A stretch of DNA of 64,000 nt, taken from assembly GCA_023663725.1 (NCBI GenBank), contig JAMPGX010000007.1:1-64000 (forward strand). The letters are read 5' to 3'. Both the position numbers and the translations under genes were made by a program. The first letter of the stretch is position 1, and each line of letters opens with the position of its first letter. The notes beneath the pieces were generated by a model. That model made no database searches. It was not told the DNA's origin and saw nothing but the letters and a program-made list of their open reading frames with translations. Below are positions 54,388-60,746 of the stretch, piece after piece. The DNA is from a bacterium. Its GTDB lineage: Bacteria; Bacillota; Clostridia; Lachnospirales; Lachnospiraceae.

Positions 54388-54846
54388 ATGATGGACGAAC
54401 AACAAAAACAAGATTATGAAAAATATGTCAAGCAAGTGACGCCCACCCACAATCTGGGATTGCAGATGCTGAAAGCATTCATAACAGGTGGTATTATATG
54501 CTGTATCGGACAGTTTATCCTGAATTATTGTGAGCAGCTGGGCCTGGACAAGCAGACCGCGGGAAGCTGGTGTTCTCTGCTCCTGGTGCTCTGTTCCGTG
54601 GTGCTGACAGGGTTTAACCTGTATCCCAAGCTTGTGAAATGGGGCGGCGCAGGAGCGCTGGTGCCAATTACCGGTTTTGCCAACTCCGTGGCGGCTCCCG
54701 CAATCGAATACAAGAAGGAAGGACAGGTATTCGGTGTGGGCTGTAAGATCTTCACGATTGCCGGACCGGTGATTCTATTTGGTATCTTTGCCAGCTGGGT
54801 GCTGGGTCTGGGGTATTGGATCTTGAAGCTCCTGGGAATCTGCTGA
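54388..54846 (+). CDS. spoVAC: Stage V sporulation protein AC
   Basis: 152 residues; AAGGAGGT lies just before ATG ATG. Four to five membrane segments, with the SpoVAC core (HNLGLQMLKAFITGGIICCIGQ; WGGAGALVPITGFANSVAAPAIEYKKEG). SpoVAC is thought to be the mechanosensitive DPA channel. No spoVAD or spoVAE follows on this strand: a hairpin and an opposite-strand gene do. Confidence 0.92.
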   Translation: MMDEQQKQDYEKYVKQVTPTHNLGLQMLKAFITGGIICCIGQFILNYCEQLGLDKQTAGSWCSLLLVLCSVVLTGFNLYPKLVKWGGAGALVPITGFANSVAAPAIEYKKEGQVFGVGCKIFTIAGPVILFGIFASWVLGLGYWILKLLGIC

Positions 54847-54851
54847 TAGAT

Positions 54852-54893
54852 CGGGGCCCCTCTGTCAAGCCTGTGCGAGACAGAGGGGCCCCG
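54852..54893. terminator. Very strong hairpin between spoVAC and the C25 gene
   Basis: CGGGGCCCCTCTGTC (54852-54866) pairs perfectly over 15 nt with GACAGAGGGGCCCCG (54879-54893), 12-nt loop. No T run follows on either strand, so it may rather stabilise the two converging mRNAs or act as a Rho-type end. Confidence 0.55.
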
Positions 54894-54908
54894 ACGTTGC
54901 CTGAGGAA

Positions 54909-57900
54909 TTATTCTACCAGGATAGCAAAGGACTTCTGATAGGAGTAGGGATAATGGGTGTGGGGGTTGATTCCCTCGACGGTACACTCCGCCGTGTAGA
55001 TTCCATTGCCGGACTCAGCGCTGTCGCACTGACTGAGCATGTCCAGCTCGCCCAGTGCACACTCATAGATGCCGTCGGCATTGGCCTGCAGGAAGGCAAA
55101 GGTCTGTACCGGCTTGAATATGTCTTCCCCGGTAACCTGCAGATGCTTGGCACGAAGTGTGTCAAGCAGTTGGTATGTTTCGGCCTCTGTACCAGCGGCT
55201 TCACCGGCGATATCCAGCGCATCGATTTGATCGGCATATTTTTTCAGCAGGCTTTCCGCACAGCAGGCCGCCTTGCTGATCTTGGCCGTCACCTTGGCGT
55301 CTGTCACAGGTGAGCCGGACTGGTCCCTGATTGCGAGACGCACAGCGGCGGACGACAGAGAATCCACATGTGTCGCGCAGGCGGATGTAATCTGGACCAC
55401 AGGGTGCCTCTCGAAGCCGCCCACTGTGCCGCCCATTCTCTCGCTGGTGCTGTACTGCAGCAGGACCGTCCACTCGCCGGGTTTGGCATTGTCAATATCG
55501 AAAATGCAATATCCGTCGCCGCTGACAGTGGGTCTCACATTCTGCTTTTGATTGTTGGGATCGTATAAGATGACGTTAATCCCATTGTTCTCCGGATAGC
55601 CGTCTGTGTAATGGTATTTCTTGTCCGTCCAGACCACTCCCAGCTGATATTGGCTGTCATATTGGGAGAGCTTGAACTTGCGGATGAGGGAGCCGCTTCC
55701 CATCTGGTATTCCTCGCCCTGATTGATCAGGAGGCCGCAGGAGGTGGATGCATTACGGATATCATTGAACATAAGCATCATCCCGTAGGCATCCGGCTGA
55801 TAGTACAGCTTGCTCTTGGGATTCTTCTGCAGCATGCTCTTATAATAGGATTCTGTGAAATAAGGCCCCATACCGGCGACATACAGGGGTGGCTCACTGC
55901 CGAGCACTGCATCAGGCGTGCTGCCTCCGGTATTATGCGCACCATCGCTCAGCAGGACAAAGGCTTTGACGTCCGTGTTAAGATTGGCGTGCATGGCATT
56001 GCCCAGCGTGATCGCGTCACTGATATTGGTCATGGGACTGTAATTGGGAATGCTGTAGGTGGCCTCAATGCTGTTTGACGCATTTTCGGTCTCATGCAGA
56101 TCGGCTGAGACAGTGGTCGGCGTTGTACCCTGTGGACAGATCCATTTTGCCTTGTTGGAGAACATATTCACTCCGAATTGATCGCCCGGCAGAGAGTACT
56201 GGACAAACGCCTTGGCATTGATTTTGACGAGGTTCTGGGCGTCGTACATCGTACCGGACGCATCCAGCATCAACACATATCCCACGGTCTTGTCAATGTC
56301 CTGATAATTGGCTGAGGGATCTCCCAGCAGCAGGTATTCCTGTATATTTGTCTTCGTAAGATCATCTCCTTTTCTGTTTTTGTATAATGTGGTGGTAGCC
56401 CACATATAGATATCGGATATATCGGTCAACTTCTGAGTTTTCAGCGCCTCCCATATGTATTTGTCGAAGTCATGGTTGACAACGGTATAGGAGGGAGCCG
56501 AAGCGCCCAAGAAGGTGATGGCCTTATTCTTTTTCAGCCATTCGACCCCAAAGCAGTTACTTTTACGCATATCGTTGTTGTTACAGCAGATGCTGAATAC
56601 ATGCGGGAGGCAGCCGCTGTCCTTCAATTTACCTACATCCGATGTGTTCAAGCCGTTGGAGGACTGCCAGCAATCGTAATCACCATGACCTCTGTAATTG
56701 ATGAAGGTTTTTCCCTTGTTGATCTCGTCGATCAGAGCCTGCTTGGTACATTTGCCATCGTAGCATTTGACCATGGGGAAAGTGCTTCCGGCACTGCTGT
56801 AGATGTCCTCCTTGCAGCTTTCGTAATCGCTTCTATCGTAGGTGGTGAGCACAGTGTTACCGGATGACTTGGAGGACAGAGTCATATAGCTGGCGGCATT
56901 GTCGCACATGTTTTTCAGCTCATCTCTACTGGAGGCCGGGAAGCGGGACAGTCCGAACAGGGGCAGGTATTCTCCCTTCTTTGCGCTGTAATAGCTGTCG
57001 CTCACAAAAGTGCCGACACCTGGATCTGTGACGGTCAGAGCAGGTATGGTGTTGAGATCGCCGGCCAGCAGCACATATTTCAGAGAAGATTTGTTGTGCT
57101 CGGCCAAAATATAGCTCTGTATGGCGTCTACCTGACTGCAGGACGGGTATTGGCTATATATGTCGTCAAGGACTGCCACATCGGTGTGAAAAGCCTTGCT
57201 TTTGTGTAAAATATACTGTTCCAGAGCAGGTTTGAAATCGGTGGTCGTCACGATCAACATCCTGGGCAGGGAATCCGTCGCGCTGTCCGTGCCCGGATTG
57301 TATCCCAGTACCATGGCGGAAAGTCCCGGACGGGAGCTGACGCGGCAGTCTGTCTGGGCGTCCGTGCGGTTATCAAGAGTATACTGAACGGCAAATTCCA
57401 GGTGCTCTACGATGCTGATCCGTCTGTCCCTGGGAAGATATTTCATGGGATAGACCATGACATGCACGCATTTTACTCCGTAAACCTCCCTTGTGTCCAC
57501 ATATTCGACGGTCACAGCAGGATATACCCCGCTGCTCTCATAGATGCTCTCATCGCGGATATATTCCGGCGTCTCCGTCTCCAGAACCGGCTTGGGAACA
57601 GGCTGTATATCCGCATCTCCGTCCAGCTTCCTCTCCGTGCAGGTCAGAATGCTGATGCCTGTAAAGCTTGCGTTTTGCGGGATAGCCACGAAGAGTCCCT
57701 CGCTGACCAGCATCGGCGCGCCCGGAGTGAGGATATGGCCGCCCTCCGGCAGATCGACAAAGCTTTCTCCCTCCCTTTCGGAAAAGGAATCACCTTGCCA
57801 GAATCCCTGTATGTCATAGCGAACAATTGTGGAACTCGGACCGCCGGCATCTGTCTGTCCACTGTGAACAACCTGCTTGACGGCGGCTGCTCCCTCAGTC

Positions 57901-57944
57901 GCAGCGTCCGTATCTTGGATAGATATCCATTTTCTGTTATCCAT
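54909..57944 (-). CDS. Gingipain-like (C25) cysteine protease with vWA domain, no signal peptide
   Basis: 1011 residues. AGGAGGT lies 8 nt before ATG. Residues about 40-200 resemble the C25 propeptide domain (EGLFVAIPQNASFTGISILT). Residues about 215-530 are the caspase-fold protease: NYRGHGDYD (His420) and FSICCNNND (Cys453/Cys454). His420 to Cys453 is 33 residues, as in RgpB, and the following Cys464-Phe matches its PCF segment spacing. Residues about 553-745 are a von Willebrand A domain with MIDAS DASGT (Asp561) and LLSDGAHNTGG. The last about 250 residues look like beta sandwiches. No signal peptide, membrane segment, LPXTG or C-terminal sorting domain, so it seems intracellular. Confidence 0.85.
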   Translation of the reverse strand: MDNRKWISIQDTDAATEGAAAVKQVVHSGQTDAGGPSSTIVRYDIQGFWQGDSFSEREGESFVDLPEGGHILTPGAPMLVSEGLFVAIPQNASFTGISILTCTERKLDGDADIQPVPKPVLETETPEYIRDESIYESSGVYPAVTVEYVDTREVYGVKCVHVMVYPMKYLPRDRRISIVEHLEFAVQYTLDNRTDAQTDCRVSSRPGLSAMVLGYNPGTDSATDSLPRMLIVTTTDFKPALEQYILHKSKAFHTDVAVLDDIYSQYPSCSQVDAIQSYILAEHNKSSLKYVLLAGDLNTIPALTVTDPGVGTFVSDSYYSAKKGEYLPLFGLSRFPASSRDELKNMCDNAASYMTLSSKSSGNTVLTTYDRSDYESCKEDIYSSAGSTFPMVKCYDGKCTKQALIDEINKGKTFINYRGHGDYDCWQSSNGLNTSDVGKLKDSGCLPHVFSICCNNNDMRKSNCFGVEWLKKNKAITFLGASAPSYTVVNHDFDKYIWEALKTQKLTDISDIYMWATTTLYKNRKGDDLTKTNIQEYLLLGDPSANYQDIDKTVGYVLMLDASGTMYDAQNLVKINAKAFVQYSLPGDQFGVNMFSNKAKWICPQGTTPTTVSADLHETENASNSIEATYSIPNYSPMTNISDAITLGNAMHANLNTDVKAFVLLSDGAHNTGGSTPDAVLGSEPPLYVAGMGPYFTESYYKSMLQKNPKSKLYYQPDAYGMMLMFNDIRNASTSCGLLINQGEEYQMGSGSLIRKFKLSQYDSQYQLGVVWTDKKYHYTDGYPENNGINVILYDPNNQKQNVRPTVSGDGYCIFDIDNAKPGEWTVLLQYSTSERMGGTVGGFERHPVVQITSACATHVDSLSSAAVRLAIRDQSGSPVTDAKVTAKISKAACCAESLLKKYADQIDALDIAGEAAGTEAETYQLLDTLRAKHLQVTGEDIFKPVQTFAFLQANADGIYECALGELDMLSQCDSAESGNGIYTAECTVEGINPHTHYPYSYQKSFAILVE

Positions 57945-57970
57945 GCGTAGTTACCTCCTGTCTTGTGCTG

Positions 57971-57992
57971 CATTTGCCCTGTCAGGCAAATG
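57971..57992 (-). promoter_or_regulatory. Hairpin in the leader of the C25 gene
   Basis: CATTTGCC (57971-57978) and GGCAAATG (57985-57992) form a perfect 8-bp stem with a 6-nt loop, about 20 nt upstream of the C25 ribosome site on the minus strand. It could attenuate or modulate translation. Confidence 0.45.
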
Positions 57993-58057
57993 TCCTCTTT
58001 TGAAAGTTACACGGTGGAAATGGTACACTTAACCCAAAAACAATGGAATCACCTCCT
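57982..58057 (-). promoter_or_regulatory. Leader with a perfect ribosome site but no ATG
   Basis: On the minus strand AGGAGGTGAT (58057-58048) is a full complement of the 16S end, yet no ATG follows at the right distance. ATT at 58044 would open a 20-codon frame ending inside the hairpin (TGA near 57983); TTG at 58043 gives only four codons. A leader peptide with an unusual start is possible, or the site acts without translation. Confidence 0.35.
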
Positions 58058-58114
58058 GCATATTAAAACCAAATTTTTTAAAAAATACATTATTAGGCAA
58101 TGTATTATAGATAA

Positions 58115-58143
58115 AGAATATAATATAAATTATTCCTTGTCAA
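58115..58143 (-). promoter_or_regulatory. Promoter of the C25 gene
   Basis: On the minus strand TTGACA (58143-58138), 17 nt, TATTCT (58120-58115). Transcription would start near 58108, giving a leader of about 165 nt. Confidence 0.75.
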
Positions 58144-58294
58144 TATATCATTGGAATTATCGGTATGGGAATCGTAAAATCACTTCTACCCATAGTTGAA
58201 TTGGCCAGGAAAATTCTTCTGCCCTGTTATTGTGAAATGGGGCGGGCGGATGGTATAATGAGTAAAACGCTCAGCGTTTAACTCTGCTGAACAG

Positions 58295-58331
58295 AATGTG
58301 CGCTAAAGCGCACGAGATCACGGTATGATAT
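58295..58331. repeat. 37-nt palindromic motif, copy A
   Basis: AAT, GTGCGC-TAAA-GCGCAC (perfect 6-bp stem), then GAGATCACGGTATGATAT. It matches 27922-27958 at about 29 of 37 positions. It ends 87 nt before the HTH-PurM start and may contain its promoter (TATGAT) and an operator. Confidence 0.5.
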
Positions 58332-58417
58332 ACTCATGGGCAGAAAATTAACATTCCTAAAAGCGGATTGGCATGACATCACAGGTAGGAGCTGTGAGGT
58401 GCGGAAAAGAGGGAGAT

Positions 58418-59668
58418 ATGCTTGACAGTATGAAAATGGGGAATTTTATAGCGTCCAGAAGAAAGCAGCTCGGTCTGACACAGCAGCAGTTGGCGGATAA
58501 GCTGAGAGTCAGCTTTCAGGCTGTATCAAAATGGGAGAACGGCACCGCCTATCCCAATGTGGAAGTCCTGTATGATCTGGGCACAGTTCTTGGGGTGACG
58601 GTGGACGAGATTCTCTCCGGCAATGAGAAGACGGCGGAGGGGCTGTCCTACAGCAAGGCGGGGATTGATATTTCCTATACGGACTCGATCAAGAGGGAGA
58701 TGGGGGAGTATTTTCACTCTCAAGATAGGAGAGTGCTGAACGGCCTTGGCCCCTTTGCGTCTCTGTATGATTTCCGTTTTCAACAGATTCCCAATCCGGT
58801 GCTGGTTCTGAAATCGGAGGAGCCGGGCTCCAAACAGAAGCTGGCCATGGAGTATGGGTACACGGAATCGATCTGTCATGACATGATCAATCATCTGGTA
58901 AACGATATTATCGTAATGGGAGCAAGGCCGCTGGCAGTGTTGGATACGATCGTGTGCGGCAACGCGGAGAAGGACACGATCAAAACTCTGGTAAAAGGTA
59001 TTGCCGAGGCCTGCAGGAATAATGAGTGTTCACTGGTAGGAGGAGAGACCTCCATACAGCCGTCTGTCATCGAGGCGGGAACATACATTCTCACCTCCAG
59101 CATCGCGGGGATTGTTGACAGAGACAGGGTGGTGGACGGCTCAGCGATCCGGGAAGGGGACGCCGTCCTCGCAATCGCTTCCAATGGGCTACATACAAAC
59201 GGCTATTCTCTGGTCAGATTATTGATGGATAGGATGCCACAGGTCAAGCTGGACAAAATACAAGGTATTACCTTTATCGAACAGATTATGAAGCCTCATA
59301 CACCTTATTACAGGGCTGTCAAAGGGCTGTTTGAGACAGATTGTCTGCACGGGATGGCGCATATCACCGGAGGGGGAATCGAGGGGAACCTGTGCCGCAT
59401 CATACCGGACGGCCTCAGTGCGGCAATCCGCGGAGAGAACATCAGGATTCTCCCTGTCTTCTCCTACATCAAGGCACAGGGAAGGATCAGCGACGAGGAG
59501 ATGCGCAGGACCTTTAACCTGGGTGTGGGCTTTGTTCTGGTTGTGCCACAGAACAAAAAAGACAGGGTGATAGAGAGCGTCTCGGCATTCTATGACTGCT
59601 ATGAGATTGGCAGGATAGAGCGAGGCAGCAAAAAGACGGATATATCCGGTCGCTTGAACTGGATTTGA
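58418..59668 (+). CDS. XRE helix-turn-helix fused to a PurM-like domain
   Basis: 416 residues from ATG 58418 (GAGGGAGA upstream). Residues about 4-70 are a Cro/CI helix-turn-helix (ASRRKQLGLTQQQLADKL, VSFQAVSKWENGTAYPN). Residues about 80-416 follow PurM (AIR synthase) order: KAGIDISYTDSIK, NHLVNDIIVMGARPLAVLD, ECSLVGGETSIQPSV, VLAIASNGLHTNGYSLVR, HGMAHITGGGIEGN and a C-terminal FNLGVGFVLVV. Sequence suggests a complete PurM fold, so it could be a nucleotide-sensing regulator or a bifunctional enzyme. No other purine gene is nearby. Confidence 0.85.
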   Translation: MLDSMKMGNFIASRRKQLGLTQQQLADKLRVSFQAVSKWENGTAYPNVEVLYDLGTVLGVTVDEILSGNEKTAEGLSYSKAGIDISYTDSIKREMGEYFHSQDRRVLNGLGPFASLYDFRFQQIPNPVLVLKSEEPGSKQKLAMEYGYTESICHDMINHLVNDIIVMGARPLAVLDTIVCGNAEKDTIKTLVKGIAEACRNNECSLVGGETSIQPSVIEAGTYILTSSIAGIVDRDRVVDGSAIREGDAVLAIASNGLHTNGYSLVRLLMDRMPQVKLDKIQGITFIEQIMKPHTPYYRAVKGLFETDCLHGMAHITGGGIEGNLCRIIPDGLSAAIRGENIRILPVFSYIKAQGRISDEEMRRTFNLGVGFVLVVPQNKKDRVIESVSAFYDCYEIGRIERGSKKTDISGRLNWI

Positions 59669-59811
59669 CAACTCTATTTCATCTGACCAGTCTTGCAGAC
59701 AGCGCGGGGAATGTAGTATACTATTCATACAAGTTGATGAACCGCCTGAAACGGATATCAGGAGACTTATATGTAATCGCAAGCAGGCTTGCAATATGCG
59801 GGGATATAAAT

Positions 59812-60255
59812 ATGGAAAAGGATAAAACTCTCACAGTAAAATCATGGCTATATGATTATACCGAGGACGAAGTTCAGGCTTCTATCGCTAAAACAGAAGA
59901 CCCAGAAATCTTATATCTTTATGCATACAATTATAATTGGGATGATGGATTTACGATACCACAATTCATTCTTGATCATAAAAATTGTAATTTAAGTATT
60001 GCACTGCTAATCTTTTATAGGGCTGACGGAGTTAGTTATCTATTTCATAAGTCCGACTATAAAAATGTACCTCAAGGAGCATTTATTAAAAAATTATATG
60101 ATTCCATCGTTGAAGGCAAGTATCAGGAGGCGGATATAGAATTTAAAGCACCGTTGTCGAAGGTTCAATACTATAAATTGAAAAAATTATTAACAGAACG
60201 GGAATATGTTTTTATAGAAAATATCAGTGGAAAGAATTTGGATATTGATCTGTGA
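59812..60255 (+). CDS. DUF4274 protein
   Basis: 147 residues from ATG 59812 (GGGGAT upstream; the longer frame from 59665 overlaps the previous gene). The DUF4274 signature is visible: DPEILYLYAYNYNWDDGFTIP, then DHKNCNLSIALLIFYRADG. DUF4274 domains are frequent among immunity-like genes of polymorphic toxin systems, but no toxin is next to it. Codon usage is AT-richer than the neighbouring genes, a sign of transfer. Confidence 0.75.
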   Translation: MEKDKTLTVKSWLYDYTEDEVQASIAKTEDPEILYLYAYNYNWDDGFTIPQFILDHKNCNLSIALLIFYRADGVSYLFHKSDYKNVPQGAFIKKLYDSIVEGKYQEADIEFKAPLSKVQYYKLKKLLTEREYVFIENISGKNLDIDL

Positions 60256-60296
60256 CAGGATAATAAAAATTTAAAGCAGTATGGAAGGGCGCGATA

Positions 60297-60746
60297 ATGA
60301 GGACTTTACCTATAACAGCCAGCAAGGAAGAGATTAAGGAACTGGTTATTGAGTGGAATGAGCTTTTGGCACAAGAAAAATATGAAGAAGCCTTCGAGAT
60401 GTTTCTTGCCGAAAATGATGAACTGGACTGGACACCGGAATTATTAGAATCAGCGGTATATACTTATGGCTGCCCAGGTTATACACGGGAAGAGGCGGAA
60501 GAAGAATTTGGCTCCTCTGATTATAAAGTAACTTCAATACTGCAAAATCCTAATAGGGACCAAATTATAGAAAGTATCGATATCTCATCAGATTATGGCT
60601 GGATGGGCAAAAATGATATTGCGGTAATCCATTATGGAAACGTCCCTCTCAACGGAATGATGAGTGATCTGACAGCCATATTTTTTGTTCGCAGGGTTAA
60701 CGATGATCAGATTACTTTATCCTTCGTTGATTTACATGTAATGTGA
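60297..60746 (+). CDS. Uncharacterised acidic protein (149 residues)
   Basis: 149 residues, very acidic (EELLAQEKYEEAFEMFL; EEAEEEFGSSDY), no signal or membrane segment, last half with a beta-strand pattern (IAVIHYGNVPLNGMMSDLTAIFFVRR). I recognise no family. It follows the DUF4274 gene by 41 nt in the same AT-rich segment, and the two look like a pair of orphan immunity-type genes (inference). Confidence 0.6.
   Translation: MRTLPITASKEEIKELVIEWNELLAQEKYEEAFEMFLAENDELDWTPELLESAVYTYGCPGYTREEAEEEFGSSDYKVTSILQNPNRDQIIESIDISSDYGWMGKNDIAVIHYGNVPLNGMMSDLTAIFFVRRVNDDQITLSFVDLHVM

What the first reader, a model, noticed from the sequence alone, without database searches (positions are those of the whole stretch)
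54909..58143. Apparently intracellular gingipain-like (C25) protease fused to a vWA domain with a structured leader
Propeptide-like, C25 caspase-fold and vWA domains are all recognisable, with His420/Cys453 at the same 33-residue spacing as RgpB. Known gingipains are secreted with signal peptides and sorting domains; this protein begins MDNRKWISIQD and has no export signal or anchor. The promoter, long leader, perfect but unassigned ribosome site and hairpin suggest tight control. It could be a self-contained caspase-like effector or a processing enzyme with vWA-mediated assembly. That role is inference.
Basis: partly seen in the sequence, partly recalled or inferred. Interest (0 to 1): 0.75.

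Follow-up and report, generated by a model that had tools for sequence, protein, structure and literature searches.

The report
Signal-less gingipain-like protease with vWA domain
A gut-type bacterium carries a protease related to the secreted gingipains that has no export signal and is fused to a binding domain; it belongs to a small group of such signal-less proteases that probably mature, or are delivered with, other proteins.

Summary
The 1011-aa ORF (54909-57944, minus) is real: C25 profile 1.7e-48, retained C25 prodomain, a weak vWA confirmed through relatives, then about 340 uncharacterised residues. The missing signal peptide is also real, and shared: all seven intact members (the window's included) start 3-15 codons after an in-frame stop without a hydrophobic leader. 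With one degenerate copy they form one branch (98/99), so this is a distinct leaderless C25 clade. The conserved nucleophile is Cys454, not Cys453. The vWA half is a separate adjacent gene in two relatives: the window protein is a fused two-gene module. One relative lies in a Nif11-like precursor / radical-SAM operon, two beside an unknown 210-aa protein. Three of eight carrier genomes, the window's included, also encode a contractile injection system marker (background 14 of 390). None of 36 same-genus genomes searched has the gene; one shows an empty site. Special leader control is unsupported (fold z -0.75); no defence context was found at the window gene. Best reading: cytosolic processing protease with a vWA recruiting module (0.4). 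Main rival: effector released by injection or lysis (0.27). No structure could be predicted; activity, location and substrate are untested.

The parts
54909..57944 (-). whole gene, 1011 aa, leaderless: C25 prodomain + C25 peptidase + vWA + C-terminal region
57756..57944 (-). N-terminal extension aa 1-63, polar, no signal peptide; variable among members
57357..57755 (-). Propeptide_C25 domain aa 64-196 (gingipain prodomain-like)
   Evidence: PF08126 5e-9; the clade profile A3 matches the RgpB prodomain 4ief_A at 1e-5
56310..57260 (-). Peptidase_C25 catalytic domain aa 229-545
56685..56687 (-). His420 codon, invariant in 7 of 7 (NYRGHG motif)
56583..56585 (-). Cys454 codon, invariant in 7 of 7, aligned with RgpB Cys244
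55941..56276 (-). vWA domain aa 557-668, MIDAS residues D561, S563, T565, T639, D667
54912..55940 (-). C-terminal region aa 669-1011, conserved in the separate vWA partner genes of two relatives and, more distantly, on a Rhizobium plasmid
58115..58143 (-). sigma-70-like promoter TTGACA-17-TATTCT
   Evidence: consensus match only
58051..58057 (-). AGGAGGT ribosome-site-like sequence without an assigned gene; heads only TTG frames of up to four codons
57970..57993 (-). 9-bp-stem inverted repeat upstream of the gene's own ribosome site
   Evidence: leader fold not exceptional
57954..57959 (-). AGGAGG ribosome site of the gene
54823..58399 (.). stretch not present at the syntenic site of same-genus genome G021 (280 bp there)

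Best explanation
The gene encodes a member of a small leaderless clade of C25 (gingipain-fold) cysteine peptidases that work in the cytosol as dedicated processing enzymes. The peptidase is kept in check by its retained prodomain and uses the His420/Cys454 dyad to cut a particular partner protein or peptide. In this lineage the vWA plus C-terminal module, a separate gene in two relatives, is fused on as a metal-dependent recruiting or assembly module that brings substrate and protease together. Shown: family, dyad residues, prodomain, absence of a signal peptide across the clade, fusion/fission with the vWA partner, and the empty site in a same-genus genome. Inferred: location, activity, inhibition by the prodomain, substrate, the role of the vWA. 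The substrate in the window genome is not identified.
For: C25 and prodomain profiles. Dyad residues invariant in 7 of 7. No signal peptide in 7 of 7 intact members, against hydrophobic leaders in 9 of 10 other C25 hits measured, the tenth being cut by a contig end. Leaderless members form one branch, 98/99. In L032 the C25 gene follows a 96-aa precursor with a weak Nif11-like leader (TIGR03798 7e-4, PF07862 4e-3, both below cut-off) and a radical SAM/SPASM enzyme (PF04055 2e-21), with gaps of 16 and 21 bp: the arrangement expected of a cytosolic peptide-maturation protease. In G147 the C25 gene follows, on the same strand, an HTH gene and a 55-aa small ORF that by eye looks amphipathic; an ABC transporter gene and a double HTH/RNPP regulator lie nearby on the other strand. 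C25 and vWA are adjacent genes in two relatives and fused here. PADLOC gives no hit for the window protein.
Against: No precursor peptide, modifying enzyme or 210-aa partner lies next to the window gene. The peptide-operon evidence comes from one clear relative (L032) and one suggestive one (G147) of eight carriers. Five of eight carriers lack the vWA module, so it is not needed by the clade. The residue aligned with RgpB Asp163 is not conserved (E, E, R, D, I, N, T), so no common specificity can be read. Cysteine content does not separate the leaderless C25 proteins (1.1-2.3%) from signal-bearing ones (0.7-1.8%). The same leaderless anatomy fits a delivered effector.
Confidence: 0.4

Rival explanations
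1. A leaderless effector: the protease-vWA protein leaves the cell without Sec, loaded in an extracellular contractile injection system (eCIS) or freed by lysis (for example of the sporulation mother cell), and acts on a neighbour's or host's proteins; the vWA binds the target and the prodomain protects the producer.
For: The window genome encodes an eCIS cluster on another contig (sheath, tube, CIS_tube, spike base, gp25, Pvc16_N, eCIS_core, AAA). Pvc16_N occurs in 3 of 8 carrier genomes against 14 of 390 other sampled Clostridia: Fisher p 0.003; 0.028 without the window genome; 0.021 with sister genomes collapsed. Geller 2021 (PMC8213781, passages seen) names vWA PF00092 among eCIS-associated domains that seem to target eukaryotes. 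The distant vWA homologue on a Rhizobium plasmid lies two genes from a 536-aa protein without a Pfam assignment that by recall resembles phospholipase C.
Against: The C25 gene is not in the eCIS locus (contig 47 against contig 3). Pvc16_N was not found in 5 of 8 carrier genomes. The eCIS test was chosen after looking at the data. The sheath search in plasmids named two Rhizobium records, neither of them the two that carry the vWA and 210-aa relatives (chromosomes not searched). The L032 operon context fits processing better. No packaging signal could be tested.
Confidence: 0.27
2. A self-contained caspase-like death or defence effector: a signal sensed by the vWA half releases the peptidase, which digests the cell's own proteins.
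For: Clan CD fold (the relation of gingipains and caspases is established knowledge); leaderless; retained prodomain; rare and probably horizontally acquired. vWA modules and caspase-like peptidases both occur in bacterial conflict systems (PMC8195603, passages seen).
Against: No PADLOC hit for the window protein. The window neighbours are sporulation genes (SpoVAA, SpoVAB, SpoVAC) and an HTH-AIRS gene, none of them a MoxR ATPase. Among the neighbours scanned, only the Ancillula-bin pair has a defence gene, Cas3, close by.
Confidence: 0.1
3. A decaying or opportunistic remnant of a formerly secreted C25 protein that lost its signal peptide and has no specific role.
For: Rare, patchy; one relative (L028) is degenerate.
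Against: The dyad residues and several neighbours are invariant in 7 of 7; a single leaderless branch spans Lachnospiraceae, Oscillospiraceae and an Actinomycetota bin; the 1011-aa frame is intact and joined in frame to a conserved partner.
Confidence: 0.08
4. A spore-associated protein made in the mother cell, where coat proteins also lack signal peptides (recalled), suggested by its place beside the sigma-factor and spoVA block.
For: Neighbouring sporulation genes; leaderless.
Against: It is convergent with, not part of, the spoVA genes; it is not at the same site in G021 nor in 36 same-genus genomes searched; the promoter match is sigma-70-like; no sporulation neighbours were noticed by eye beside the other carriers' genes.
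Confidence: 0.05

Closest known systems
Gingipains RgpB and Kgp (peptidase family C25)
   Same: prodomain plus C25 catalytic domain, His/Cys dyad, NYxGHG and xCxN surroundings
   Different: no signal peptide; no T9SS sorting domain detected; vWA and a different C-terminal region; His-Cys spacing 34, not 33; the loop around RgpB Glu152 (a residue recalled as catalytic) has no counterpart in the alignment
Signal-bearing C25 proteins of Lachnospiraceae (L018, L019, L020)
   Same: C25 domain, same bacterial family; genome G207 has both kinds
   Different: hydrophobic leaders, 915-1018 aa, C25 match in two pieces with an insertion between, separate branch
PorU, the T9SS C25 sortase
   Same: C25 domain matched (NF033707, 55.9 bits)
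   Different: far below the 420-bit cut-off
RiPP leader-peptide proteases (such as C39)
   Same: leaderless protease encoded with a Nif11-like precursor and a radical SAM enzyme in L032
   Different: a 2023 review of these proteases has no occurrence of C25, clostripain, caspase, C11 or clan CD in its main text (PMC10885120, term search only); the window gene has no such neighbours
MoxR-vWA ternary conflict systems (PMC8195603, passages)
   Same: vWA module with an effector-type enzyme
   Different: no MoxR ATPase beside the gene

Membership tests
Peptidase family C25 | C25 catalytic domain above the curated cut-off | tested here: met
   166.2 bits against 23
Peptidase family C25 | His and Cys of the catalytic dyad | tested here: met
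   His420 and Cys454 align with RgpB His211 and Cys244 and are invariant in 7 of 7
Peptidase family C25 | proteolytic activity | not testable with these tools
   no assay; residue at the RgpB Asp163 position varies
Gingipain (secreted, T9SS-sorted) | signal peptide | tested here: not met
   in-frame stop three codons upstream; best 12-residue hydropathy in the first 70 residues 0.65, against 2.4-3.2 in four signal-bearing proteins; SignalP itself not run
Gingipain (secreted, T9SS-sorted) | C-terminal sorting domain | tested here: not met
   no such family in Pfam or NCBIfam scans at E up to 10
Gingipain (secreted, T9SS-sorted) | prodomain before the catalytic domain | tested here: met
   PF08126 5e-9; prodomain structures 4ief_A and 5mun_A matched by the clade profile
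vWA domain | profile match above the curated cut-off | tested here: inconclusive
   22.1 against 27 bits in the window protein, above the cut-off in two close relatives
vWA domain | MIDAS residues | tested here: met
   kept in 3 of 3, T for S at one position in the window protein
PorU sortase | NCBIfam equivalog score | tested here: not met
   55.9 bits against 420
RiPP maturation protease | precursor and modifying enzyme in the same operon | tested here: not met
   not met at the window gene; met for relative L032, with a precursor match below cut-off
eCIS-associated cargo | gene within the eCIS locus | tested here: not met
   eCIS on contig 3, gene on contig 47
eCIS-associated cargo | found inside particles | not testable with these tools
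   needs proteomics
MoxR-vWA ternary conflict system | adjacent MoxR-type AAA ATPase | tested here: not met
   adjacent genes are SpoVAC and HTH-AIRS
Caspase/metacaspase (C14) or clostripain (C11) | profile match | tested here: not met
   no C14 or C11 family among the three Pfam hits at E up to 10

The most novel reading that the evidence does not exclude
A cytosolic branch of the gingipain fold exists as a class of dedicated maturation or effector proteases that do not use the secretory path at all; with a radical-SAM peptide operon in one relative and contractile injection systems in three carrier genomes, it may be a new protease class for ribosomal peptides or a new kind of injected protease, with a vWA module that can be fused on or supplied as a separate gene.
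Probability: 0.3. Interest if true: 0.72.

Novelty: new variant of a known kind. Interest (0 to 1): 0.5.

Why it matters
C25 peptidases are known mainly as secreted enzymes of Bacteroidota (established knowledge). A leaderless clade in gut Firmicutes with prodomain and dyad residues kept gives a new, testable setting for the fold: a protease that must be active, or kept inactive, in the producing cytosol. If it matures peptides it adds a protease class to peptide natural-product pathways; if it is injected it adds a cargo class. The vWA fusion/fission gives a ready-made hypothesis for how it finds its partner.

Tried and rejected
Defence island: PADLOC gave no hit for five of six proteins, the window's among them, and only AbiEii at 0.0038 for the rumen relative P0002; rejected for the window. 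Known leader RNA: no Rfam match in the window at the gathering threshold; leader fold z -0.75. Hidden upstream start or signal peptide: excluded by an in-frame stop. Phage or plasmid origin: no match in phages for the whole protein; in plasmids one distant match to the vWA half; viral contigs gave no relatives for either half, by pattern scans. Cysteine content as a location test: the ranges overlap. Solved-structure searches: nothing usable for the 210-aa family; for the vWA partner only weak vWA matches (best 0.0057) and nothing for its C-terminal region. Literature: searches for C25 with Lachnospiraceae, radical SAM, Nif11 or biosynthetic gene cluster returned no paper; of the other listings I looked into five papers by term search only (one of them, PMC8213781, named by DOI), one of which (PMC10266427) was irrelevant. 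Not done: structure model, fold search, SignalP. Stretch L055 (G010) was fetched and not analysed.
Full report
WHAT IS THERE. The minus-strand ORF 54909-57944 encodes 1011 aa without interruption. Pfam gives Peptidase_C25 over aa 229-545 (E 1.7e-48), Propeptide_C25 over aa 64-196 (E 5e-9) and a sub-threshold vWA over aa 557-668 (22.1 bits, cut-off 27). Solved relatives by sequence are RgpB-type gingipain R (4.5e-19) and Kgp (1e-8); a profile of seven members also reaches PorU and the gingipain prodomains. The third acid of RgpB (Glu152, named from recall) falls in a loop missing from the alignment, and the specificity position Asp163 (recalled) aligns with E here but varies in the clade, so specificity cannot be read.

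NO SIGNAL PEPTIDE, AND NOT ONLY HERE. An in-frame stop lies three codons before the ATG and the first 70 residues have no hydrophobic core. The same was checked in all seven intact members: stops 3 to 15 codons upstream in 7 of 7, best 12-residue hydropathy 0.1-1.6. Ten other C25 hits served as yardstick: 9 of 10 have a hydrophobic leader (2.2-3.2); the tenth, L022, is cut by a contig end. SignalP was not available.

RELATIVES. The own genome has one C25 gene. The protein has no match in the other 60 genomes of a 61-genome set, 36 of them same-genus, of mixed completeness. Over the bacterial family, PF01364 rings in 9 of 397 genomes, 7 over the cut-off, and in 0 of 14 controls. Three of the nine carry a leaderless protein (own, G147, G207); G207 also has a signal-bearing copy, as do G226 and G328; G087, G175, G272 and G387 have weaker hits, with leaders except for the cut G272 copy. 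A scan of 84,980 species genomes by degenerate patterns gave nine loci: seven at 33-40% identity and two Zixibacteria at 26% (sensitivity is limited by the patterns). Two of the seven are G207 and G147 under their names. So there are eight carriers: the window genome, a roe-deer-rumen Lachnospiraceae (L026), two Lachnospiraceae bins that are sisters in the tree, L027 and L028 (the second copy degenerate), two Oscillospiraceae bins of one sample series (L029, L031), a Candidatus Ancillula bin (L030) and an uncultured Clostridia (L032). That some bin names point to termite guts is recalled, not looked up. A class sample gave the own genome and one signal-bearing protein, 2 of 391; relatives of G207 and of L032's genome gave 3 of 195 each, with no new leaderless member: the one further hit, the same in both, has a leader. 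In a tree the eight leaderless rows are one branch, 98/99, in 98% of bootstrap trees, against four signal-bearing rows and one Zixibacteria row whose N-terminus is unknown; two outgroup rows are long, and forks inside the leaderless branch are mostly unresolved.

THE vWA HALF IS A MODULE. In L026 the C25 gene (561 aa) is followed after 3 bp by a 452-aa vWA gene, and in L030 (554 aa) after 22 bp by a 417-aa vWA gene, 39% and 37% identical to window aa 550-1011. In the genomes of the other five carriers no such vWA was found (3 of 8 positive; completeness of those bins not told). The window protein is thus a fusion of a two-gene module, or the pairs are its fission. A distant homologue (24%, 4e-15) lies on a Rhizobium leguminosarum plasmid with a leaderless 536-aa protein and a 65-aa protein with weak Ig-like matches upstream; the 536-aa protein shows no C25 similarity, and its resemblance to phospholipase C is from recall.

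NEIGHBOURS OF RELATIVES. L032: a 96-aa precursor (Nif11-like matches below cut-off), radical SAM/SPASM, then C25, with gaps of 16 and 21 bp. L029 and L031: a protein of about 210 aa upstream on the same strand (62 and 133 bp away), 51% identical to each other, with no Pfam family; relatives occur on a Rhizobium and an Alicyclobacillus plasmid and beside a trypsin-like protease that by eye lacks a leader in G130. This family was not found in the window genome and in 1 of 150 family genomes. G147: small ORFs of 55 and 96-111 aa and an HTH gene on the C25 strand, an ABC transporter gene and a double HTH/RNPP regulator on the other. The window gene has none of these: its neighbours are SpoVAA, SpoVAB and SpoVAC on one side and an HTH-AIRS fusion on the other.

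PROBABLY ACQUIRED. In same-genus genome G021 the same block (77-81% DNA identity) runs from the spoVA genes to the HTH-AIRS gene with 280 bp in place of the window's 3577 bp (54823-58399). With 0 of 36 same-genus genomes positive, gain in the window lineage is likelier than repeated loss. Gene GC (0.523) matches the window (0.5175); the leader is AT-rich (GC 0.381).

LEADER. The promoter-like site is a 10 of 12 consensus match; the scanned region has more such matches (15) than shuffles (5.0, sd 2.0). The 184-nt leader does not fold better than chance (z -0.75). With no close orthologue, covariation could not be tested.

eCIS. Pvc16_N was found in 3 of 8 carrier genomes (the window's, L029's and L031's) and in 15 of 391 class genomes including the window's; 0 of 14 controls. 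Fisher p is 0.003 for 3/8 against 14/390, 0.028 without the window genome, 0.021 with sisters collapsed. The window genome's cluster has sheath, tube, CIS_tube, spike base, gp25, Pvc16_N, DUF4280, eCIS_core and AAA genes. The C25 gene is not in that cluster. The test was chosen after seeing the data and carriers are few, so this is a lead, not a result.

INTERPRETATION. I rank a cytosolic processing protease first (0.4), because the carrier with the clearest operon couples the enzyme to a precursor and a radical SAM enzyme, and because all intact members keep dyad residues and leaderlessness, and the three scanned singly keep the prodomain match. The effector route is the main rival (0.27): leaderless plus prodomain plus vWA plus an eCIS in the same genome would fit. 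Death or defence effector (0.1), remnant (0.08) and spore protein (0.05) are less likely. Shown: family, dyad residues, leaderless clade, fusion or fission, empty site. Inferred: location, activity, substrate, vWA role. The structure tool was off, so there is no fold evidence.

NOVELTY. C25 is a known family; a leaderless, prodomain-bearing branch with a separable vWA partner is a new variant by the evidence here. Searches for C25 with Lachnospiraceae, radical SAM, Nif11 or biosynthetic gene clusters were empty. Term searches in two eCIS papers found neither C25 nor gingipain, and one in a review of RiPP leader proteases found no C25, clostripain, caspase, C11 or clan CD; passages only, not whole papers.

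Against the calls I corrected the L032 gaps (16 and 21 bp), the vWA start (aa 550), the G021 identity range, the tree's outgroup description and the scope of the review search, and I measured the leaders of six further C25 hits.

Noticed in passing
window 58373-59668 (+): Fusion of a Cro/C1-type HTH with an AIR-synthase-like (PurM/SelD-type) enzyme; close orthologues at 77% and 71% in two same-genus genomes and remote ones spanning the HTH in two more.
   Followed up: partly
window 59665-60746 (+): A gene pair (GC 0.34 for the first, DUF4274; the second without a Pfam family) with no room for it at the syntenic place in G021; perhaps orphan immunity-type genes, which is a guess.
   Followed up: no
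L086/L087 (window genome, contig 3, about 28-46 kb): An extracellular contractile injection system cluster with an eCIS_core protein in a Lachnospiraceae-like genome; same-genus G082 also has Pvc16_N.
   Followed up: partly
L032 6284-9620: Nif11-like precursor, radical SAM/SPASM enzyme and leaderless C25 protease in one tight operon: possible new peptide natural-product pathway.
   Followed up: partly
L029 4860-5483, L031 7205-7819, L042, L043, L041: A family of about 210 aa without a Pfam model, next to proteases (C25 or trypsin-like) or on plasmids of Rhizobium and Alicyclobacillus; fold unknown.
   Followed up: partly
L037 7156-10380: Rhizobium leguminosarum conjugative plasmid with a leaderless 536-aa protein, a 65-aa protein with weak Ig-like matches and a vWA protein related to the window's C-terminal half.
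   Followed up: partly
L030 11602-14640 (-): Cas3 gene close to the C25-vWA gene pair in the Candidatus Ancillula bin.
   Followed up: no
L028 7905-9629: Degenerate copy of the leaderless C25 gene in a bin close to L027, its first part joined to what looks like the start of the upstream HTH gene.
   Followed up: no
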